This document shows positions 14,650 through 62,989 of a DNA stretch of 64,000 bases, one piece after another. Where the stretch lies: NCBI GenBank assembly GCA_035772405.1, contig JAYKKM010000143.1, forward strand, positions 1,827,501 through 1,891,500, written 5' to 3'. The notes beneath the pieces are model-generated. The model made no database searches and was not told the DNA's origin. It saw nothing but the letters and a program-made list of their open reading frames with translations. The DNA comes from Chrysogorgia sp. JL179-B06. Lineage: Eukaryota > Cnidaria > Anthozoa > Scleralcyonacea > Chrysogorgiidae. Every line of letters begins with the position of its first letter. The stretch's first letter is position 1. The translations under genes and the position numbers were made by a program.

Positions 14650-15331
14650 CATATGAGGTGCCATTCCCGCCAAAATTAAGCACTGTACAATTTATAAAAT
14701 GCAGCCTACAACTTCATAAAATGCAGCTGCAATTTATAAAATGCAGCCTACAATTTTATAAAATGCAGCTACAATTTATAAAATGCAGCGTACAACTTTA
14801 TAAAATGCAGCCTACAATTTTATAAAATGCAGCCTACAATTTTATAAAATGTAGCTACAATTTATAAAATGCAGCCTACAACTTTATAAAATGCAGCCTA
14901 CAATTTTATAAAATGCAGCCACAAACCACTGGAATTGTTAAAGCATTGTAAGCAGTAAATTATGAGATGAGGATTAGGATCTTAGGATTAGGATTTACTG
15001 CTTACAATGCTTTAACAATGCATTGTAAGCAGTAAATTATTGGATTGTAATCAACCCCAAAACAACAAAGATCCTAACCCTAACCCCCTAATTAAGGCAG
15101 CATTTTATAAAGTTGTAGGCTGTATTTTATAAATTGTAGCTGCATTTTATAAAATTGTAGGCTGCATTTTATAAAGTTGTAGGCTGCATTTTATAAATTG
15201 TAGCTGCATTTTATAAAATTGTAGGCTGCATTTTATAAATTGCAGCTGCATTTTATAGAGTTGTAGGCTGCATTTTATAAATTGAAGAGTGCTTAATTTT
15301 GGCGGGAATGGCACCTCATAGTTCCACAGAT
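14650..15331. mobile_element. Foldback element with minisatellite arms
   Basis: The ends ATGAGGTGCCATTCCCGCC (about 14,654) and GGCGGGAATGGCACCTCAT (about 15,300-15,318) are exact inverted repeats. Each continues inward through AAAATTAAGCACT and then many units of about 20-22 bp, TTATAAAATGCAGCCTACAA on the left and the reverse complement on the right. The centre holds two copies of CATTGTAAGCAGTAAATTAT and a short telomere-like CCTAACCCTAACCCCCTAA at about 15,073-15,091. Short similar words, GTTCCAC(G/A)GATGACG, flank both sides at about 14,626 and 15,331. Confidence 0.8.
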
Positions 15332-53544: not shown

Positions 53545-55575
53545 ATATATCGAGTGTTGGAATACATACATTTTAAGACCAAACCGGGACCAGTTGCGAA
53601 AAATGCAACTTCAAGGCCTTCCGGCTGGAATTGAACCCGCGCGACCCTGCGATGCTAGTGCAGTGCTCTGACCACTGAGCTATATGGAAGCCGTTGCCGA
53701 GAGCCTAGTCACGAGTTCTGTATATATGGTGGTAATGCCGGGATAAGACTCTGGGTATATTATAGGTAATATTTGGCATTTCACTCGATCAAACTATACA
53801 TGTTGAAAGGATTTATGGTGAAGGAAAATTTCGAGTGTTGGAATACATACATTTTAAGACCAAACCGGGACCAGTTGCGAAAAATGCAACTTCAAGGCCT
53901 TCCGGCTGGAATTGAACCCGCGACCCTGCGATGCTAGTGCAGTGCTCTGACCACTGAGCTACGGAAGCCGTTGCCGAGAGCCTAGTCACGAGTTCTGTAT
54001 ATATGGTGGTAATGCCAGGATAAGATTCTGGGTATATTATAGGTAATATTTGACATTTCACTCGATCAAACTACATGTTGAAAGGATTTATGGTGAAGGA
54101 AAATTTCGAGTGTTGGAATACATACATTTTAAGACCAAACCGGGACCAGTTGCGAAAAATGCAACTTCAAGGCCTTCCGGCTGGAATTGAACCCGCGACC
54201 CTGCGATGCTAGTGCAGTGCTCTGACCACTGAGCTACGGAAGCCGTTGCCGAGAGCCTAGTCACGAGTTCTGTATATATGGTGGTAATGCCAGGATAAGA
54301 TTCTGGGTATATTATAGGTAATATTTGACATTTCACTCGATCAAACTACATGTTGAAAGGATTTATGGTGAAGGAAAATTTCGAGTGTTGGAATACATAC
54401 ATTTTAAGACCAAACCGGGACCAGTTGCGAAAAATGCAACTTCAAGGCCTTCCGGCTGGAATTGAACCCGCGACCCTGCGATGCTAGTGCAGTGCTCTGA
54501 CCACTGAGCTACGGAAGCCGTTGCCGAGAGCCTAGTCACGAGTTCTCTATATATGGTGGTAATGCCGGGATAAGATTCTTCGTATATTATAGGTAATATT
54601 TGGCATTTCACTCGATCAAACTACATGTTGAAAGGATTTATGGTGAAGGAAAATTTCGAGTGTTGGAATACATACATTTTAAGACCAAACCGGGACCAGT
54701 TGCGTAAAATGCAACTTCAAGGCCTTCCGGCTGGAATTGAACCCGCGACCCTGCGATGCTGTGGTAATGCCCGGATAAGATTCTATATTTGGCATTTCAC
54801 TCGATCAAACTACATGTTGAAAGGATTTTTGGTGAAGGAAAATTTCGAGTGTTGGAATACATACATTTTAAGACCAAACCGGGACCAGTTGCGAAAAATG
54901 CAACTTCAAGGCCTTCCGGCTAGAATTGAACCCGCGACCCTGCGATGCTAGTGCAGTGCTCTGACCACTGAGCTACGGAAGCCGTTGCCGAGTCACGAGT
55001 TCTGTATATATGGTGGTAATGCCGGGATAAGATTCTGGGTATATTATAGGTAATATTTGGCATTTCACTCGATCAAACTACATGTTGAAAGGATTTATGG
55101 TGAAGGAAAATTTCGAGTGTTGGAATACATATACATTTTAAGACCAAACCGGGACCAGTTGCGAAAAATGCAACTTCAAGGCCTTCCGGCTGGAATTGAA
55201 CCCGCGCGACCCTGCGATGCTAATGCAGTGCTCTGACCACTGAGCTACGGAAGCCGTTGCCGAGAGCCTAGTCACGAGTTCTGTATATATGGTGGTAATG
55301 CCGGGATAAGATTCTGGGTATATTATAGGTAATATTTGGCATTTCACTCGATCAAACTACATGTTGAAAGGATTTATGGTGAAGGAAAATTTCGAGTGTT
55401 GGAATACATACATTTTAAGACCAAACCGGGACCATTTGCGAAAAATGCAACTTCAAGGTATTCCGGCTGGAATTGAACCCGCGACCCTGCGATGCTAGTG
55501 CAGTGCTCTGACCACTGAGCTACGGAAGCCGTTGCCGAGAGCCTATAGTCACGAGTTCTGTATATATGGTGGGTA
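53545..55575 (-). repeat. Tandem array of tRNA-Ala-like units (SINE-like), minus orientation
   Basis: Eight head-to-tail units, near 275 bp each (two shortened), start near 53,550, 53,828, 54,104, 54,379, 54,655, 54,847, 55,115 and 55,395. Each contains, on the minus strand, GGCTTCCGTAGCTCAGTGGT, an AGC anticodon-like loop (CTAGCAT) and GGGTTCAATTCC: pol III A and B boxes in a tRNA-Ala-like fold. A constant tail follows (TTGCATTTTTCGCAACTGGT..., CAACATGTAGTTTGATCGAG...). The 82-codon frames in successive units are nearly identical but contain no known domain; they follow from the repeat. Confidence 0.88.
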
Positions 55576-56202
55576 TATTATAACTCGTGGGTATATTAGA
55601 ACTCGTGACTAGGCTCTCGGCAACGGCTTCCGTAGCTCAGTGGTCAGAGTACAAGACTAGCATCGCAGGGTCGCGGGTTCAATTCCAGCCGGAAGGCCTT
55701 GAAGTTGCATTTTTCGCAACTGGTCCCGGTTTGGTCTTAAAATGTATGTATTCCAACACTCGATATTTTCCTTCACCATAAATCCTTTCAACATGTAGTT
55801 TGATCGAGTGAAATGCCAAATATTACCTATAATATACGTCCCATAATCTTATCCCGGCATTACCACCATAGACTAGGCTCTCGGCAACGGCTTCCGTAGC
55901 TCAGTGGTCAGAGCACTGCACTAGCATCGCAGGGTCGCGCGGGTTCAATTCCAGCCGGAAGGCCTTGAAGTTGCATTTTTCGCAACTGGTCCCGGTTTGG
56001 TCTTAAAATGTATGTATTCCAACACTCGATATTTTCCTTCACCATAAATCCTTTCAACATGTAGTTTGATCGAGTGAAATGCCAAATATTACCTATAATA
56101 TACCCATAATCTTATCCCGGCATTACCACCATAGACTAGGCTCTCGGCAACGGCTTCCGTAGCTCAGTGGTCAGAGCACTGCACTAGCATCGCAGGGTCG
56201 CG
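55576..56202 (+). repeat. Inverted continuation of the tRNA-Ala-like array, interrupted by the small Polinton-class element
   Basis: At about 55,580 the array flips orientation. Two full plus-strand units follow (tRNA-like parts at about 55,625-55,700 and 55,889-55,964). A third is cut at GGGTCGCG (56,202) and resumes after the inserted element at 62,605. In the second, the T-arm carries two extra bases (GCGCGGG). Confidence 0.85.
56197..56202. repeat. Target-site duplication GTCGCG, left
   Basis: GTCGCG precedes AGTAGTAGG; the same six bases follow TACCTACT at 62,605-62,610. In intact array units the site reads CAGGGTCGCGGGTTCAA once. Confidence 0.9.
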
Positions 56203-56425
56203 AGTAGTAGGTAACAACCCCCCCCCCCCCCATATAGCTCCCAAAGGGATGCCGCCGCGCGCTGATTGGTCGAGCAACGCGCGTCATGCTGAGCGGGACG
56301 CACAGCCGCCGGGACTCACGCGTGACGCACAGCCGCCGGGACTCACGCGTGACGCACAGCCGCCGGCACTCACGCGAGACGTACAGCCACCGTGACGAGC
56401 GCGTGACGAACGGAAGTCATTGGCT
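56203..56425. repeat. Left terminal inverted repeat of small element
   Basis: Matches 62,455-62,604 inverted. It includes a GC-rich tandem of about 25 bp (GACGCACAGCCGCCGGGACTCACGCGT, three to four units), present as about three units on the right. Confidence 0.8.
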
Positions 56426-57526
56426 ATAATTATGTAGCGAATATAAGCTATACTAGGTTACCTGCAAGGTAGGGAATGCTGCGGGAGTCGTTTTAACTGC
56501 ACTGGATTACGTTAGGGAAATAGAGGGTACCAAGGGACTATTAGGGGGTAGGGTGTTTTGTAATTTAACTTTATATCAACCGCAAAAAATAGTTTTAAAA
56601 CTCTGCCTTTATAAACTGGCAGAGGACCGCGTGATATGGAAATCTGAAAATTAAAATACCAAACCACAAATGAGCATATAGCAGAAAACAATTACATGAG
56701 GTCAAACAAAATACAAAAAGGCAACTAACAAAACCAGTACCTCCCAAGTGGTACCACATAAACAGTGATAAACATTCAACAGACAATGAGACAACAGAAA
56801 CCGCGTATGGAAATTTACTAGTAATAGACTAATCGACGGTGAAAATAGCGAAGAAGCAATCAAGTGAATACAATCGTAATTATGAATCAACAAAAGAATA
56901 AAATAATTACCTTTTATTATAAAACCTTTCAAGAGCAAAATTTGCACGTGTATGAACGACGCAGAAAGAACAAAGAACGGAAATACCGAAACCTAAGGCA
57001 AGGCGATGACGCAGAAAGAACAAAGACCGGAAAGGTTACCCAACACCAAATCTGTCAATCTCCCGGCAAAGAACAAAGACCGGAAAGGTTACCCAACACC
57101 AAATCTGTCAATCTCCCGGCAGACGGAGTATTGTCGTGATCTAAGTTAGTACCAAATGCCTCAAAAAAATGTTTACCTCGCAAATAGCACTTAGGAGGCA
57201 AAGCAGCAAGCAATGTCTTGCGAAATTGTGCTGAAATGCAAAATTCAATGGCGCTGTGGGGGTACTACGAGGTAATGCGCAGCACCAACTGCGCACGACC
57301 ACAATTCCATGCGCTTGATGTTTTGAGATAAAAATCCCCATAGTACACAAATTAGATCTGCTGCGTCCGCTCGCTCGCTTCAGGCTCGCTCGCTACCGCA
57401 GCAATAAGCCCAGTGATAAAAAATGTTGGACGTGTATCGCCTTCCGTCTATACGTTACTCCATTATCACTTGGCTTACTTGCTTTAGGAGACGTGTTTTG
57501 AAACTGAGCGATCATTGTTGTTTATT
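56426..57526. other. Left-specific non-coding part of the small element
   Basis: No gene recognised. It contains two tandem copies of a 51-bp unit (AGAACAAAGACCGGAAAGGTTACCCAACACC..., about 57,017-57,120). Confidence 0.5.
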
Positions 57527-57955
57527 ATGGCTTTCCAAAGAGATTTTTCTAAACTCTCCGTACCTACTGACTTTGGAGATGTGGAAAAAATTCTGAACCG
57601 CCGTCAAAAGCTGATTGAACATCTATTATTAAAATGTTATGCAGAAGAAATTTCAATCGTCATTTCTACTTTGGTGTTGGAAAATTGTGAAGGCTGTCGT
57701 ATTAAGCATTCGTCTCAAAGACAACACGATTGCCTAATGATGGAAGACGACCAGAAAATGTGGTTGTACTTTGACAACGCTTTGGAAAAACTGTCGGAGG
57801 CAAAGATTGTCGAGGCTTTCATAAACAGTTTACGAAACGTCAGGCCAACTGTGAACGGTCTTGAACTATTGAAGTATACATGTCAAGACTGGAGAACACT
57901 GCTTTGCGCAAAGAATAGAGGACTTATTAAACGCCAGACACTTGCATGCATGTAA
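57527..57955 (+). CDS. Unknown conserved-looking protein of the small element
   Basis: 142 residues from ATG 57,527; the in-frame upstream codons are non-ATG. Mostly helical: MAFQRDFSKLSVPTDFGDVE, then EKILNRRQKLIEHLLLKCYA. A Cys/His patch (ENCEGCRIKHSSQRQHDCLM) could bind zinc. Next come QKMWLYFDNALEKLSEAKIV and LLKYTCQDWRTLLCAKNRGL. I have a weak recollection of such proteins repeated in coral genomes; no function is known. The frame is intact in an element with otherwise broken genes, and its closeness to the left end suggests it matters to the element. Start is preceded by an AT-poor leader, so no TATAGTATA box here. Confidence 0.6.
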   Translation: MAFQRDFSKLSVPTDFGDVEKILNRRQKLIEHLLLKCYAEEISIVISTLVLENCEGCRIKHSSQRQHDCLMMEDDQKMWLYFDNALEKLSEAKIVEAFINSLRNVRPTVNGLELLKYTCQDWRTLLCAKNRGLIKRQTLACM

Positions 57956-58298
57956 TAATAATTAACATTCGCAATCATGTGATAATAATTAACATTGTTA
58001 TTTGAAATAAAGTTGATTGGAATTATTTGACAAGTTATTTTGTTTCATATCCTTTAAATACATGAAGTATGGACAAATGTGTGACTGTCGAAAGAGTCTT
58101 AGACGAAATCGAACGAGTAATCTAGTCGAACGATTCACCTTATATTGACACGATTACAGTATATATTATTTATGTCGAGATACCGAACGGTGGTGTGCGA
58201 TCACGTTCGTTTTCTCCCCGTAGACAAATAGCGCCAGTTTATATTAACTAGATAAATTGGGATTAATGAAAAGCAACGTCTAAAAATACCATCACGCA

Positions 58299-58600
58299 AT
58301 GTCGCAATCTAATGACAAAGTGGACAAACCCCCGCAATCTCTGTCTCGTTCGTCGCAAAAGGCCAAATCGATGAACGCTATCTATACATTACAGATTATC
58401 GAAGGCCATTGGCGAACTTGCTTACGAATTGCGCGAAAAAGCCAGCATTCCACGACATTTCAAAGCAATTTGGGCGACTAAATAAACATCGTCTCAAATG
58501 TCTCGATGGACACTTATTTGGGCCCGGAAGCGTCTAAACGCATTAACGCCCACGATAACCAATTGCGATGTAAGCATGGGGGACTCAAATTAATAACAAG
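58299..58600 (+). pseudogene. Small-element accessory gene, frameshifted (left-arm copy)
   Basis: ATG 58,299 opens MSQSNDKVDKPPQSLSRSSQ, KAKSMNAIYTLQII, then the natural-looking continuation (AIGELAYELREKASIPRHFK) is in a different frame. A third segment (KQRLKCLDGHLFGP-type) is in another. The right arm carries the reverse copy at about 61,770-62,075 with the same three-part layout and different breaks. Unknown function. Confidence 0.5.
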
Positions 58601-58935
58601 AACCGCGCTTATAAAAGCTCGATGGTAATGCAGAGCCAATACTTTACTTCCAGTGTTTCACCGTAGTTTCTTGCGTTTACTGTATTGGATAGTTTACCGG
58701 GTGGAGGGATGTTTATGGGTACTCTGGGGTATTGCGGGGTACTTGTAGTCCTCTTTTTGTCTTAAATAGTCATCCTATTGTCCTAAATAGTCCTCCTGTA
58801 GTCCTAAATAGTCCTCATATTGTCCTAAATAACGGGTATGGGAGTGGCCTCAGCATTAAGTCATATTTGTGGAACGGGATGTTCCGAGACAGATATAGAG
58901 TTTAAAAAGTATTTATTTCAATTCAAATGTTTATA

Positions 58936-59358
58936 TCAATAAGGTCGGCTTCTCAGGAAATAGCGATACTTGGGTAATCTAATTTTTGTTGGATTATGAG
59001 GTTCATTCCGTGGAATTTGCGTAATGTAATGGTCACTTTCATGCGAGTCTTCGTCCGAAGCATTAAACGAATTTTGGTATTCATCATTGTCTTGCCGATC
59101 ACGGTTTTCTATTTCTTCAGATTCTTCGTCTTCATCAGGGTCTCTTTCATCTGAATCACTTTCGTCCACAACAGTATCATCTACATCTTCTCTTTCATCT
59201 GAATCACTTTCATCCACATCGGTGTCACCAATGTGCCAGTATCGTCCCGGATGCTCAACTGTGCGAGGCGGCGTTAAAAAATAATCCTCAGGTGAATCAG
59301 AAATCGCTGGGGGATATGACGGACTTTGTTGCTCTGAAGCAACCACAATATTTTGCAT
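58936..59358 (-). CDS. Acidic-tail protein fragment (left-arm copy)
   Basis: 140 codons ending at TGA-type stop near 58,936. The sequence is MQNIVVASEQQSPSYPPAIS, FLTPPRTVEHPGRYWH, a Ser/Asp/Glu tandem (DVDESDSDEREDVDDTVV repeated once), and a basic end (KIRLPKYRYFLRSRPY). It equals the end of the Gln-rich gene downstream of the ATPase on the other arm, here cut off from its front by the inverted duplication. The in-frame ATG is probably internal. Role unknown; acidic low-complexity tails occur in chromatin and capsid-packaging proteins. Confidence 0.55.
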   Translation of the reverse strand: MQNIVVASEQQSPSYPPAISDSPEDYFLTPPRTVEHPGRYWHIGDTDVDESDSDEREDVDDTVVDESDSDERDPDEDEESEEIENRDRQDNDEYQNSFNASDEDSHESDHYITQIPRNEPHNPTKIRLPKYRYFLRSRPY

Positions 59359-59374
59359 GGGTTGAACCGAGTTG

Positions 59375-59778
59375 GGATGATCTTTGATCAGGGATGATCT
59401 CTGAGGGATGATCTCTGATCAGGGATGATCATTGATCAGGGATGATCATTGATCAGGGATGATCTCTGAGGGATGATCTTTGATCAGGGATGATCTCTGA
59501 GGGATGATCTCTGAGGGATGATCTCTGAGGGATGATCTCTGAGGGATGATCTCTGAGGGATGATATTTGATCAGGGATGATCTCTGATCAGGGATGATCA
59601 TTGATCAGGGATAATCATTGATCAGGGATGATCATTGATCAGGGATAATCTCTGAGGGATGATCTTTGATCAGGGATGATCTCTGAGGGATGATCTTTGA
59701 TCAGGGACGATCTCTGATCAGGGATGATCGTTGATCAGGGATGATCGTTGATCAGGGATGATCGTTGATCAGGAATGA
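59375..59778. repeat. GATCAGGGATGATC minisatellite
   Basis: About 25 units alternating (TG)ATCAGGGATGATC(T/A)(C/T)T and GAGGGATGATCTCT, full of GATC sites and the palindrome TGATCA. It marks the junction between the left arm and the unique centre. Confidence 0.9.
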
Positions 59779-59857
59779 TGTCAGGAAACTGAACAGGTTA
59801 AATACACTAACTAATGTTTTAAGCGTTCGTTATGTTGCTGCCCTTTACCAAGAGAAC

Positions 59858-60709
59858 ATGTCCTACGCCTGTCATATATGCGAAAAGAACTTCACGATAC
59901 GAAGTAATTTAAAGCGTCATACAAAGAATATGCATGGGGAGAAACAATCGACTCGACCCACATCCCTTGCCAATGGTTTGACAATCATGCAGCATCCGTT
60001 TACCTGCATTGTAGCTGGATGCACCCAGAGTGGTAAGACTGCTTGGGTAAGAAATATTTTGGAAAACGCTCAAGCAACCATCAGTCCCCCTCCTGAACGT
60101 ATCATTTGGTGCTATGGACAATGGCAACCCATGTACTTGGATATGATCACAACTATACCAGGCATTGAGTTTAAAGAGGGTATACCCTCTGGCTCTGACA
60201 TTGACAAAAAGGACTTTTTAGATGTCTCTGAACGCAACCTCATCGTCCTCGACGATCTTATGGCTCAGTCAGGGGGAGATAAACGCATAGCCGACCTATT
60301 CACAAAGGGTAGTCATCATCGGAATCTATCTGTCATCTACATTGTTCAGAATATATTTCATAAAGGCAAGGAAACCAGAAATATCAGCCTCAACGTCCAC
60401 TATATCGTACTATTCAAATCTCCAGGAGACAGGCAACAAATCTCCGTATTAGCGCGCCAAGTCAACCCTGGCCATGTTCAGGAGTTTATGAAAAGTTACG
60501 AGGACTCAGCGACAAAGCGTCCACACGGATATCTCATGCTTGATCTAAAACCGACTACCGATGATCAACATCGATTAAAAACGAATGTGCTACCAGATGA
60601 AAATACCTCTGATCAACAAGTTCTGGACCATTATATTCGAAAGAGGGCATATAAACCTTCTATCACCGGTGATCAATATCAACTGAAAACGAACGTAAAG
60701 CCTGAATAA
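59858..60709 (+). CDS. DNA packaging ATPase with N-terminal C2H2 zinc finger
   Basis: Start set at ATG 59,858 (283 residues), since residues before it come from the minisatellite. A C2H2 finger (ACHICEKNFTIRSNLKRHTK) is followed by the ATPase: Walker A GCTQSGKT near residue 56-63, PPPERIIWCYGQWQPMY, Walker B LIVLDDLMAQSGGDKR near 130, HHRNLSVIYIVQNIFHKGKE, and ISLNVHYIVLFKSPGDRQQI, ending near PHGYLMLDLKPTT. The core motifs are complete, and this zinc-finger/ATPase pairing recurs in animal genomes (recollection). The relation to the ATPase of the 17-kb element is distant: only Walker motifs and general layout agree. TAA at 60,707-60,709 truncates a tail that continues in frame to 61,099. Confidence 0.85.
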   Translation: MSYACHICEKNFTIRSNLKRHTKNMHGEKQSTRPTSLANGLTIMQHPFTCIVAGCTQSGKTAWVRNILENAQATISPPPERIIWCYGQWQPMYLDMITTIPGIEFKEGIPSGSDIDKKDFLDVSERNLIVLDDLMAQSGGDKRIADLFTKGSHHRNLSVIYIVQNIFHKGKETRNISLNVHYIVLFKSPGDRQQISVLARQVNPGHVQEFMKSYEDSATKRPHGYLMLDLKPTTDDQHRLKTNVLPDENTSDQQVLDHYIRKRAYKPSITGDQYQLKTNVKPE

Positions 60710-61099
60710 AATACCGCGGGTCAACAGAACCTGGACCGCTATATTCGAAAGCCATCGTATCAACAACCACCCATCCTCAATGCTATGTACAACTCGGATC
60801 AACAGATGCATAATATTATGCATGCGCCTCAGTTAACACCATATGAAAAGAGTACGCTTTACTCGAATGAATTACACCGTTTCCAGACATTCCAAAATCA
60901 GCTACAAAATCAACATATTCAAAATAGTCATCAAAATCAGCATCAGAATCTGTTAACGAAAAGCCTATCGGTGGCCTCAAAGAAACAAAGTTCTGCTCAT
61001 GGGCCAGATCAACAATCAGATCAACCCATGCAAAATATTGTGGTTGCTTCAGAGCAACAAAGTCCGTCATTAATTTTTAACGCCGCCTCGCACAGTTGA
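60710..61099 (+). pseudogene. In-frame Gln-rich extension of the ATPase gene
   Basis: Same frame as the ATPase with only TAA 60,707-60,709 between. A module of about 40 residues seems duplicated across the stop (QVLDHYIRKRAYKPS before, QNLDRYIRKPSYQQPP after). Then Gln/His/Asn-rich sequence (FQTFQNQLQNQHIQNSHQNQ) runs to MQNIVVASEQQSPS and a frame break at about 61,070. Confidence 0.6.
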
Positions 61100-62262
61100 G
61101 CATCCGGGACGACACTGGCACACTGGTGAAACCGATGTGGATGAAAGTGATTCAGATGAAAGAGAAGATGTAGATGATACTGTTGTGGACGAAAGTGATT
61201 CAGATGAAAGAGACCCTGATGAAGACGAAGAATCTGAAGAAATAGAAAATCGTGATCGGCAAGACAATGATGAATACCAAAATTCGTTTAATGCTTCGGA
61301 CGAAGACTCGCATGAAAGTGACCATTACATTACGCAAATTCCACGGAATGAACCTCATAATCCAACAAAAATTAGATTACCCAAGTATCGCTATTTCCTG
61401 AGAAGCCGACCTTATTGATGTAAACATTTGAATTGAAATAAATACTTTTTAAACTCTATATCTGTCTCGGAACATCCCGTTCCACAAATATGACTTAATG
61501 CTGAGGCCACTCCCATACCCGTTATTTAGGACAATATGAGGACTATTTAGGACTACAGGAGGACTATTTAGGACAATAGGATGACTATTTAAGACTACAA
61601 GAGGACTACAAGTACCCCATAATACCCCCAGAGTACCCATAAACATCCCTCCACCCGGTAAACTATCCAATACGGTAAACGCAATAAACTACGATGAAAC
61701 ACTGTAAATAAAGTATTGGCTCTGTATTACCTTCAAGCATTTATAAGCACGGTTCTTGTTATTAATTTGAGTCACGCCATGCTTACATCGCAATGGTTGT
61801 CGTGGGCGAAAATATGTTTAGACGCTTCCGGCCCGAATAAATGTCCATCGAGACATTTGAGACGTTGTTTATTTTGTCGCCCAAATAGCTTTGAAACGTC
61901 GATACGGTGAGTGGAACGCTGACTTTTTCGCGCAATTCGTAAGCAAGTTCGCCAATGTCTTCGATAACCTTTAATCATACTTTAATGTATGGATAGCGTT
62001 CATCGTTTTGGCTGACAGAGATTGCGGGGGTTTGTCATTAGATTGCGACATTGCGTGATGGTATTTTTAGACGTTGCTTCTCATTAATCCCAATTTATCT
62101 AGTTAATATAAATCGGCGCTATTTGTCTAGGTTTGCGATCACGTTCGTTTTCTTCCCGTCCCACCGCTCGCCATCCCGACATAAATGCTGTAATCGAGAA
62201 CGTGTCGTTCGACTAGATCACTCGTTCGATTTCGTCTAAGACTCTTTCGACAGTCAGTCGCT
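61075..62262 (+). repeat. Right arm of internal inverted duplication
   Basis: Mirror of 58,079-59,360. It lacks a stretch of roughly 50 bp present in the left arm just after QSPS (left residues PAISDSPEDYF), which creates the frame break near 61,075-61,100. A broken accessory gene lies in it on the minus strand (about 62,075-61,770). Confidence 0.8.
61137..61418 (+). pseudogene. Acidic-tail segment (right-arm copy)
   Basis: 93 codons, DVDESDSDEREDVDDTVV repeated once then DPDEDEESEEIENRDRQD, NSFNASDEDSHESDH and KIRLPKYRYFLRSRPY, stop TGA near 61,416. Identical in sequence to the left-arm copy across this stretch. It is the natural C-terminal end of the ATPase/Gln-rich frame but is separated from it by the deletion near 61,075. 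Confidence 0.6.
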
Positions 62263-62454
62263 TTCTAGACATGAACGGCAGCGAAATGGGATACTCGAGT
62301 TGAGTCAAACTCATAATGAACCACACGACCAAGTAAATTAACAAGGACCTGGTATAAACGTTTCAGGACATTAGTTATACCCCGCACTTGCAAATCATTC
62401 AACTATTAAATAATTATTTACAAACACACAAAATGCGAGGGATTATTGCCAATA

Positions 62455-62604
62455 TGCGTGAGTCACGGCGGCTGTGCGTCCCGCGTGAGTCACGGCGGCT
62501 GTGCGTCACGCGTGAGTCACGCTCAGCATGACGTGCGTTGCTCGACCAATCAGCGCGCGGCGGCATCCCTTTGGGAGCTATATGGGGGGGGGGGGCTACC
62601 TACT
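62455..62604. repeat. Right terminal inverted repeat of small element
   Basis: GTGAGTCACGGCGGCTGTGCGTC tandem, then CATGACGTGCGTTGCTCGACC, CAGCGCGCGGCGGCATCCC, a G-run and TACCTACT. Mirror of 56,203-56,425. Confidence 0.8.
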
Positions 62605-62651
62605 GTCGCGGGTTCAATTCCAGCCGGAAGGCCTTGAAGATGCATTTTTCG

Positions 62652-62707
<56 letters not shown>

Positions 62708-62989
62708 CCTATAATATACCAGAATCTTATCCCGGCATTATCACCGTTATATGCAGGACTCGTGACTAGGCTCTCGGCAACGGCTTCCGTAGCTCAGTGT
62801 CAGAGCACTGCACTAGCATCGCAGGGTCGCGGGTTCAATTCCTGACCGGAAGGCCGCTAAGTTGCATTTTTCGCAACTGGTCCCGGTTAGGTCTTAAAAT
62901 GTATATATTTCCACACTCGAAATTTTCCTTCACCATAAATCCTTAGTACCTGTTGTTCAATCGAGTGAAATGCCCAATATTACCTATTA

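What the first reader, a model, noticed from the sequence alone, without database searches (positions are those of the whole stretch)
56203..62604. Small (6.4 kb) Polinton-class element with ATPase but no polymerase, integrase or capsid
Termini AGTAGTAGG.../...CCTACT, long inverted repeats and a 6-bp GTCGCG duplication define exact ends. The neighbouring array units show the empty site. Content is a zinc-finger packaging ATPase, an unknown 142-residue gene and acidic-tail genes. A packaging ATPase without capsid genes suggests a satellite-like strategy: packaging its own DNA into another element's particle. This is my best candidate for an undescribed system.
Basis: partly seen in the sequence, partly recalled or inferred. 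Interest (0 to 1): 0.82.

Follow-up and report, generated by a model that had tools for sequence, protein, structure and literature searches.

The report
Mini-Polintons carrying only a packaging motor
This 6.4-kb DNA element belongs to a large family of small mobile elements in this animal genome that keep a virus-type DNA-packaging motor gene but seem to have no genes for copying, inserting or wrapping themselves, so they probably live as parasites (satellites) of complete virus-like Polintons.

Summary
Confirmed: a 6402-bp element at 56203-62604 with AGTAG.../...CTACT ends, nested inverted repeats and an exact GTCGCG duplication in a tRNA-Ala array. It is not a one-off: of the window plus 20 fetched ATPase loci, 13 elements (12 independent insertions) have both ends and exact 6-bp duplications, 4.7-9.1 kb, 17-100% covered by their own inverted repeats. 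The A32-type zinc-finger ATPase has at least 143 places, 35 with open frames of 499 aa or more. dN/dS of its core is 0.14-0.18 in four comparisons between subfamilies (intervals below 0.32). None of the 143 lies within 25 kb of 150 capsid-like places or 30 kb of 76 PolB places (capped lists). One end is 94% identical over 144 bp to a 14.8-kb Polinton whose ATPase is only 43% identical. The one 'longer copy' is nested. Best reading: a trans-mobilised Polinton satellite lineage with its own packaging motor. Packaging into helper capsids is inferred, not shown. Corrections: the 'acidic-tail genes' are the (duplicated) 3' end of the ATPase gene, and the window's own ATPase gene is broken.

The parts
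56197..56202 (.). left target-site duplication GTCGCG (inside a tRNA-Ala gene of the array)
   Evidence: tRNA array
62605..62610 (.). right target-site duplication GTCGCG
56203..56396 (+). left terminal inverted repeat, begins AGTAGTAGG + C-run, GC-rich 27-bp repeats
   Evidence: 83.9-85.3% identical to the ends of the C186 Polinton
62456..62604 (-). right terminal inverted repeat
   Evidence: [quoted passage not shown]
57527..57955 (+). 142-aa ORF of unknown function; 57 public relatives (GCxIxHPSQRQHxCLM motif); present at both ends in L011
58082..59370 (+). left inner arm, inverted copy of the right arm
   Evidence: pairs I1-I3, I6, I11, I13, I16, I21
61016..62256 (-). right inner arm
58936..59358 (-). 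140-aa acidic ORF: inverted duplicate of the 3' end of the ATPase gene (ends YFLRSRPY)
59374..59779 (.). 17/31-bp GATC-rich tandem repeat just upstream of the ATPase
59858..60709 (+). zinc-finger + A32/FtsK-type packaging ATPase, 283 aa here (truncated; 484-536 aa in intact relatives)
60785..61099 (+). 104-aa ORF: middle part of the same ATPase gene after the stop
61069..61420 (+). acidic C-terminal part of the ATPase gene, in another frame in this copy

Best explanation
The element is a member of a family of Polinton satellites. Shown: Polinton-type ends and 6-bp duplications at many sites; no polymerase or integrase frame recognised in the copies read; an A32-type ATPase whose core is under purifying selection between subfamilies and which was not found beside capsid-like or PolB genes; and, for the window copy, ends alike to those of a capsid-bearing type of Polinton (94% at one end, 84-85% at the other). 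Inferred: the integrase and protein-primed polymerase of such Polintons act on the satellite's ends in trans, so it replicates as linear DNA (which would also explain the palindromes, as copy-back products) and inserts with a 6-bp duplication. Inferred and least sure: the zinc-finger ATPase recognises the satellite's own ends and threads satellite DNA into helper capsids in competition with the helper's motor, which is why this gene is kept.
For: 13 of 21 examined loci delimited with exact 6-bp TSDs, 12 different insertions. ATPase: 143 places, 35 with an open frame of 499 aa or more and no stop. dN/dS of the core 0.14-0.18 in four comparisons between window, L014 and L017 types, bootstrap intervals 0.08-0.31. 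0 of 143 within 25 kb of 150 capsid-like places, whereas 90 of those 150 have the other ATPase type within 6 kb. 0 of 143 within 30 kb of 76 PolB places. Terminal repeat 94% identical over 144 bp to a 14.8-kb Polinton whose ATPase is 43% identical. Elements with long open PolB frames exist in the genome. A32/IVa2 profile matches point to packaging.
Against: No evidence for particles, packaged DNA, expression or zinc-finger binding to the ends. Behind the core, the ATPase gene shows no constraint in two pairs (L009-L011: 13 nonsynonymous to 4 synonymous; L017-L024: 8 to 2). Within the window's own subfamily core dN/dS (0.29-0.38) is weak: one of the three intervals reaches 1.36. The 142-aa gene shows no selection within the subfamily (7 nonsynonymous to 1 synonymous change, window against L010). 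Only one Polinton with near-identical ends was read; its polymerase half is degenerate, and its capsid genes are named from recalled resemblance, with no convincing match in Pfam, PDB or PHROGs. Of the 40 best matches to the window's left end, 16 lie within 16 kb of the window-type ATPase, 2 (both ends of the C186 element) near the C186-type ATPase and 0 near PolB, so shared ends with a helper rest on one element. By chance alone 0.82 window-type places would be expected within 15 kb of a capsid-like place, so 0 shows lack of linkage, not avoidance. Broken copies and an arm-bearing copy without the ATPase (L033) exist; whether they moved after the loss is not known.
Confidence: 0.58

Rival explanations
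1. Ordinary non-autonomous deletion and fold-back derivatives of Polintons. The ATPase is a hitch-hiking relic; its low dN/dS was built up in a full-length ancestor that carried this ATPase and is now lost or unsampled, and the copies spread passively through their ends.
For: Arm-bearing copy without the ATPase, L033; many broken copies (window copy itself); no constraint seen behind the core in two pairs; ends shared with a full Polinton; fold-back structure is typical of defective derivatives (recalled).
Against: No full-length parent found: 0 of 143 places near 150 capsid-like or 76 PolB places; the end-matching Polinton has a 43%-identical ATPase; three subfamilies (window, L014, L017 types), in whose fetched stretches no capsid or polymerase frame was recognised, keep the ATPase core with dN/dS about 0.15 at dS 0.2-0.5.
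Confidence: 0.26
2. The ATPase-bearing minis are interfering elements or a host-tolerated defence: the ATPase acts as a decoy or dominant-negative motor that blocks packaging of full Polintons rather than packaging its own DNA.
For: The same facts: a conserved motor without capsid genes, and ends shared with a helper type.
Against: Spread by many insertions suits a selfish satellite; 12 independent ones were delimited.
Confidence: 0.1
3. The window-type ATPase does belong to a capsid-bearing Polinton, but one whose capsid and polymerase are too divergent or too low in the ranked lists to have been listed, or which lives in a different host.
For: All genome lists are capped at the best-scored candidates, and not all 219 PolB matches were listed; only one capsid type was used as query.
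Against: In the 13 delimited copies the recurrent ORFs of 90 aa or more besides the ATPase are small (105-240 aa) or low-complexity; L011 also holds retroelement-like frames. Of the stretches fetched, the only long element with this ATPase was the nested one.
Confidence: 0.12

Closest known systems
Polintons / Mavericks (Polintoviricetes)
   Same: long terminal inverted repeats, 6-bp duplications and AG...CT ends (the last two recalled as Polinton hallmarks), A32/FtsK-type packaging ATPase; one end 94% identical over 144 bp to a 14.8-kb Polinton of the same genome
   Different: 4.7-9.1 kb instead of the 15-20 kb stated in PMC4028283 (passage read); no polymerase or integrase frame recognised; the ATPase is a separate lineage, 43% identical to that of the end-matching Polinton. 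Polintons without a recognisable capsid gene are known: that paper found intact or split ones in more than 80% (passage)
Phage satellites (PICI/SaPI and the like)
   Same: small element, no capsid genes, keeps a packaging component, presumed helper; search listing with abstract openings only, the rest recalled
   Different: eukaryotic, A32-type ATPase instead of a small terminase (recalled); packaging not shown
Transpovirons
   Same: recalled: linear elements of about 7 kb with long inverted repeats that travel in particles of other viruses
   Different: many encode a pPolB-helicase (abstract passage of PMC11071308), not a packaging ATPase alone; protist hosts (recalled); not compared by any search
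Defective adenovirus genomes with inverted end duplications
   Same: protein-primed linear DNA can give symmetric fold-back genomes (recalled); PMC5033970 passages say only that incomplete particles hold left-end DNA
   Different: those are transient and not inherited; these are inherited, multi-copy and keep a selected gene
Tlr elements of Tetrahymena
   Same: relatives of Polintons that lack pPolB but keep the ATPase; passages of PMC4028283
   Different: Tlr keep integrase, capsid and penton genes (same passages)

Membership tests
Polinton / Maverick | 6-bp target-site duplication and AG...CT ends with long inverted repeats | tested here: met
   that these are Polinton hallmarks is recalled
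Polinton / Maverick | packaging ATPase of the A32/FtsK group | tested here: met
   (Pox_A32 above cut-off)
Polinton / Maverick | protein-primed DNA polymerase B | tested here: not met
   no ORF in the element is large enough; 0 of 143 ATPase places within 30 kb of 76 listed PolB places
Polinton / Maverick | retroviral-type integrase | tested here: not met
   none among the window element's ORFs (Pfam on its 4 main ORFs); in the other loci judged by eye from the ORF list only
Polinton / Maverick | capsid proteins and protease | tested here: not met
   none recognised in the element; 0 of 143 ATPase places within 25 kb of 150 capsid-like places; the capsid name of the query is recalled
Non-autonomous DNA transposon | ends shared with an autonomous partner | tested here: inconclusive
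   93.8% over 144 bp to the C186 Polinton, but that copy's polymerase half is degenerate, so the partner is not shown to be autonomous
Non-autonomous DNA transposon | no conserved coding capacity | tested here: not met
   ATPase core dN/dS 0.14-0.18 between subfamilies; 35 of 143 places with open frames of 499 aa or more
Satellite virus / phage-satellite-like element | encodes its own packaging component | tested here: met
   by homology only
Satellite virus / phage-satellite-like element | packaged in particles of a helper | not testable with these tools
   needs nuclease-protected DNA
Virophage / Polinton-like virus | major capsid gene | tested here: not met

The most novel reading that the evidence does not exclude
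These are the eukaryotic counterpart of phage satellites: an inherited lineage of small, often palindromic Polinton parasites that has lost nearly everything except its own packaging motor, with which it redirects helper capsids to its own genome, so that helper and satellite share terminal repeats while their motors have diverged.
Probability: 0.33. Interest if true: 0.9.

Novelty: new variant of a known kind. Interest (0 to 1): 0.72.

Why it matters
Polinton particles had not been observed as of 2021 (abstract openings of PMC8097293 and PMC7805220 in the listings). A multi-copy satellite that keeps a DNA-packaging motor would be indirect evidence that Polinton-type capsids are made and filled in this animal, and gives a direct test: look for protected satellite DNA. 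It would also extend capsid-stealing satellites with their own motor from phages to animals. Six searches of the paper library on Polinton derivatives and relatives, judged from titles and abstract openings, showed no description of ATPase-only Polintons, and a search for six phrasings of mini- or non-autonomous Polintons or Mavericks found 0 papers. Repbase and most subscription journals were not searchable.

Tried and rejected
Longer autonomous version: C274 82332-109114 has the right ends and a matching TATAGC duplication at 26.8 kb and contains a window-type ATPase, but it holds a second element (related to the PolB element L031/L032, with its own inverted repeats, 80-84% identical, and AGTAGTAAT ends) inserted in the zinc-finger part of the ATPase gene. 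Rejected as a longer version. The duplication of the inner insertion is only 5 of 6 bases clear.

tRNA targeting: the window element sits in the T-arm of a tRNA-Ala gene, and L025 sits in a unit of the same array; the other 10 independent insertions delimited do not lie in that unit, though L019 has one about 0.6 kb away and L009 one about 2.5 kb away. A preference cannot be judged without the array's genome-wide share.

Viral contigs: three IMG/VR scans (ATPase, ATPase alignment, capsid-like protein) found no relative. Structure: the ATPase model was poor (pLDDT 54.8) and was not searched; the 142-aa model (73.0) had no significant PDB match (best E 2.7). The PDB sequence search of the ATPase alignment matched by its zinc finger in the 60 rows listed of 198. 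dN/dS of the 142-aa gene is uninformative. Rows dropped before the count: 8 of the 21 loci examined (L013-L016, L023, L024, L027, L028) were not counted as delimited because one or both ends were not resolved; L015 has a 5-of-6 duplication. L009 and L010 are counted as one insertion because they share flanks. The TATATA duplication of L019 lies in a TA repeat and proves little.

Full report
WHAT IS THERE. The element runs from 56203 to 62604 (6402 bp), flanked by GTCGCG on both sides, and interrupts a tRNA-Ala(AGC) gene in a tandem array whose other units show the empty site. Its ends read AGTAGTAGG + C-run and, on the other strand, AGTAGGTAG + C-run. Behind about 150-190 bp of terminal repeat lies an asymmetric left segment with the 142-aa ORF, then two long arms that are inverted copies of one another (58082-59370 and 61016-62256; pieces 84-98% complementary), a GATC-rich minisatellite, and the ATPase. 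The 283-aa ORF matches Pox_A32 above the curated cut-off and Adeno_IVa2 at it. In intact relatives (L009, L011, L017 and others) the same gene is one frame of 484-536 aa with a tail ending in LRSRPY; public relatives end alike. The 'acidic-tail genes' are therefore its 3' end, once in the right arm and once, inverted, in the left. The window copy is interrupted by a stop at 60707-60709 and a later frame change.

A FAMILY, NOT A SINGLE DELETION. The genome (781 Mb, 522 contigs) has 143 scored places for this ATPase, a lower bound; 35 of 143 have an open frame of at least 499 aa and no internal stop, 30 of these in a closely similar set at 80-81% identity to the window. I fetched 20 of these loci, 10 kb each. 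With the window, 13 of 21 have both ends and exact 6-bp duplications, at 12 different target sites, because L009 and L010 share flanks: AAAGTG, GATACC, CACATA, TGGGTT, GATGTG, TATATA (in a TA repeat), CTCACT, CACGAG, CATATA, CATGTT, CACGCG, GTCGCG. Lengths are 4699-9109 bp. Inverted-repeat coverage is 17-100%: L026 is one 9.1-kb palindrome with two ATPase copies, and L014 (ends unresolved) has a 6.5-kb palindrome at 99%. Copies of the L017 type add a 105-aa and a 240-aa gene; the latter resembles a frame next to the ATPase in the C186 Polinton. L021 and L025 carry a distant 160-aa relative of the 142-aa gene. The extra length of L011 includes reverse-transcriptase-like frames (name recalled).

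SELECTION. Nei-Gojobori estimates on the ATPase core, from ORFs as they stand (the window's 283-aa ORF and some truncated ones included): window against L014, dN/dS 0.18 (bootstrap 0.10-0.31); L009 against L014, 0.14 (0.08-0.24); L009 against L017, 0.17 (0.11-0.24); L014 against L017, 0.15 (0.10-0.22). Comparisons with L028 (0.09-0.10) are near saturation in dS and one interval failed (0.05-9.00). Within the window's own subfamily the values are 0.29-0.38; one of three intervals (0.14-1.36) does not exclude neutrality. Behind the core there is little or no sign of constraint in L009-L011 (13 nonsynonymous, 4 synonymous) and L017-L024 (8, 2), and some in L017-L018, L017-L025 and L018-L025 (1-2 nonsynonymous, 3-4 synonymous), all on few changes. 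In the L014 and L017 stretches I recognised no capsid or polymerase frame (ORF list, by eye, no profile search), so the simplest reading is that selection acted on minis. Selection in a lost full-length ancestor is the main alternative.

HELPERS. PolB (PF03175) has 219 matches, not all listed, many in long open frames. One such element (L031/L032) has an A32-type ATPase and a DNA_pol_B_2 match at 1.2e-52. A second Polinton type, C186:1199012-1213800 (L029/L030, 14.8 kb, TGCGTG duplication on both sides), carries capsid-like, penton-like and protease-like frames (names recalled; Pfam, PDB and PHROGs gave no convincing match), a GRF zinc ribbon and its own ATPase; its left half is degenerate. 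Its ends match the window's right terminal repeat at 93.8% over 144 bp and 93.4% over 136 bp, better than the window's two ends match each other (85.9% over 156 bp); they match the window's left repeat at 83.9-85.3%. Yet its ATPase is 43% identical to the window's, against 79.6-95.4% for the mini copies compared (L009, L014, L017, L019). The tree puts the C186 and L031 ATPases on long branches outside the mini group, but the tool warns that long branches meet. Of the 40 best places for the window's left end, 16 lie within 16 kb of a window-type ATPase, 2 (both ends of C186) of a C186-type ATPase, 0 of PolB: near-identical ends in a capsid-bearing element rest on one element.

ARE THE MISSING GENES EVER LINKED TO THIS ATPASE? 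Of 150 capsid-like places, 90 have the C186-type ATPase within 6 kb; 0 have the window-type ATPase within 25 kb; and 0 of 143 window-type places have a capsid-like place within 25 kb (chance expectation within 15 kb 0.82, so this is lack of linkage, not avoidance). Of 143, 0 lie within 30 kb of 76 PolB places taken from the listed rows; the nearest is 43 kb away. Two of 143 (both in C378, the two ATPase copies of element L022) lie about 20 kb from a C186-type ATPase, outside the 7.3-kb element. All lists are capped by the tool, so this is strong but not exhaustive. The 26.8-kb copy on C274 is a mini with another Polinton-like element inserted in its ATPase gene. An arm-bearing copy without the ATPase, L033, also exists; its right end is not recognisable.

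HOW IT MOST LIKELY WORKS. Shown: Polinton-type insertion at many sites, no polymerase or integrase frame recognised, an A32-type ATPase with a selected core, and ends alike to those of one capsid-bearing element. Inferred: integrase and polymerase act in trans on shared ends; linear, protein-primed replication gives copy-back palindromes; the ATPase, with its own zinc finger, directs satellite DNA into helper capsids. The last step is the weakest.

KNOWN OR NEW. The parts are known (Polintons, non-autonomous derivatives, phage satellites). A eukaryotic lineage reduced to ends plus its own packaging motor was not found in seven paper searches (titles and abstract openings seen; passages read in PMC4028283, PMC11071308, PMC2871265, PMC6431247 and PMC5033970). 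I file it as a new variant of a known kind. The host is probably a cnidarian: the only organisms named in the listed public hits are Oculina patagonica and Paramuricea clavata; this is an inference.

Noticed in passing
53550-56202 and 62605-62855: Tandem array of about 266-279-bp units, each with a tRNA-Ala(AGC) gene, 9 recognised by ARAGORN, in both orientations. A second mini-element (L025) is inserted in a unit of the same array elsewhere in the genome, so 2 of 12 independent insertions hit it.
   Followed up: partly
L026 457-9565; L014 2384-8840; L022 1545-8842: Kilobase palindromes (L026 and L014 near-perfect) in which the ATPase gene is present twice, head to head; possible products of linear-DNA copy-back replication.
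   Followed up: partly
L034-L036 (G000:C274:82332-109114): A Polinton-like element with its own inverted repeats nested inside the zinc-finger part of a mini-element's ATPase gene.
   Followed up: yes
G000:C66:850131-896365: Five identical-scoring C186-type ATPase places spaced about 11.1-11.5 kb apart on one strand, suggesting a tandem array of an element or locus.
   Followed up: no
L009 and L010 (G000:C64, about 255 kb apart): The same mini-element insertion with the same flanks in two places: probably a segmental duplication.
   Followed up: partly
14686-14924 and 15095-15284: Two tandem arrays of a 21/22-bp unit (TACAATTTATAAAATGCAGCC) in opposite orientation about 170 bp apart.
   Followed up: no
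L017 5929-6246 and relatives: A 105-aa protein with a C-terminal RGGGFL hydrophobic tail in the L017-type minis; 25 public relatives, one named record from Paramuricea clavata.
   Followed up: partly
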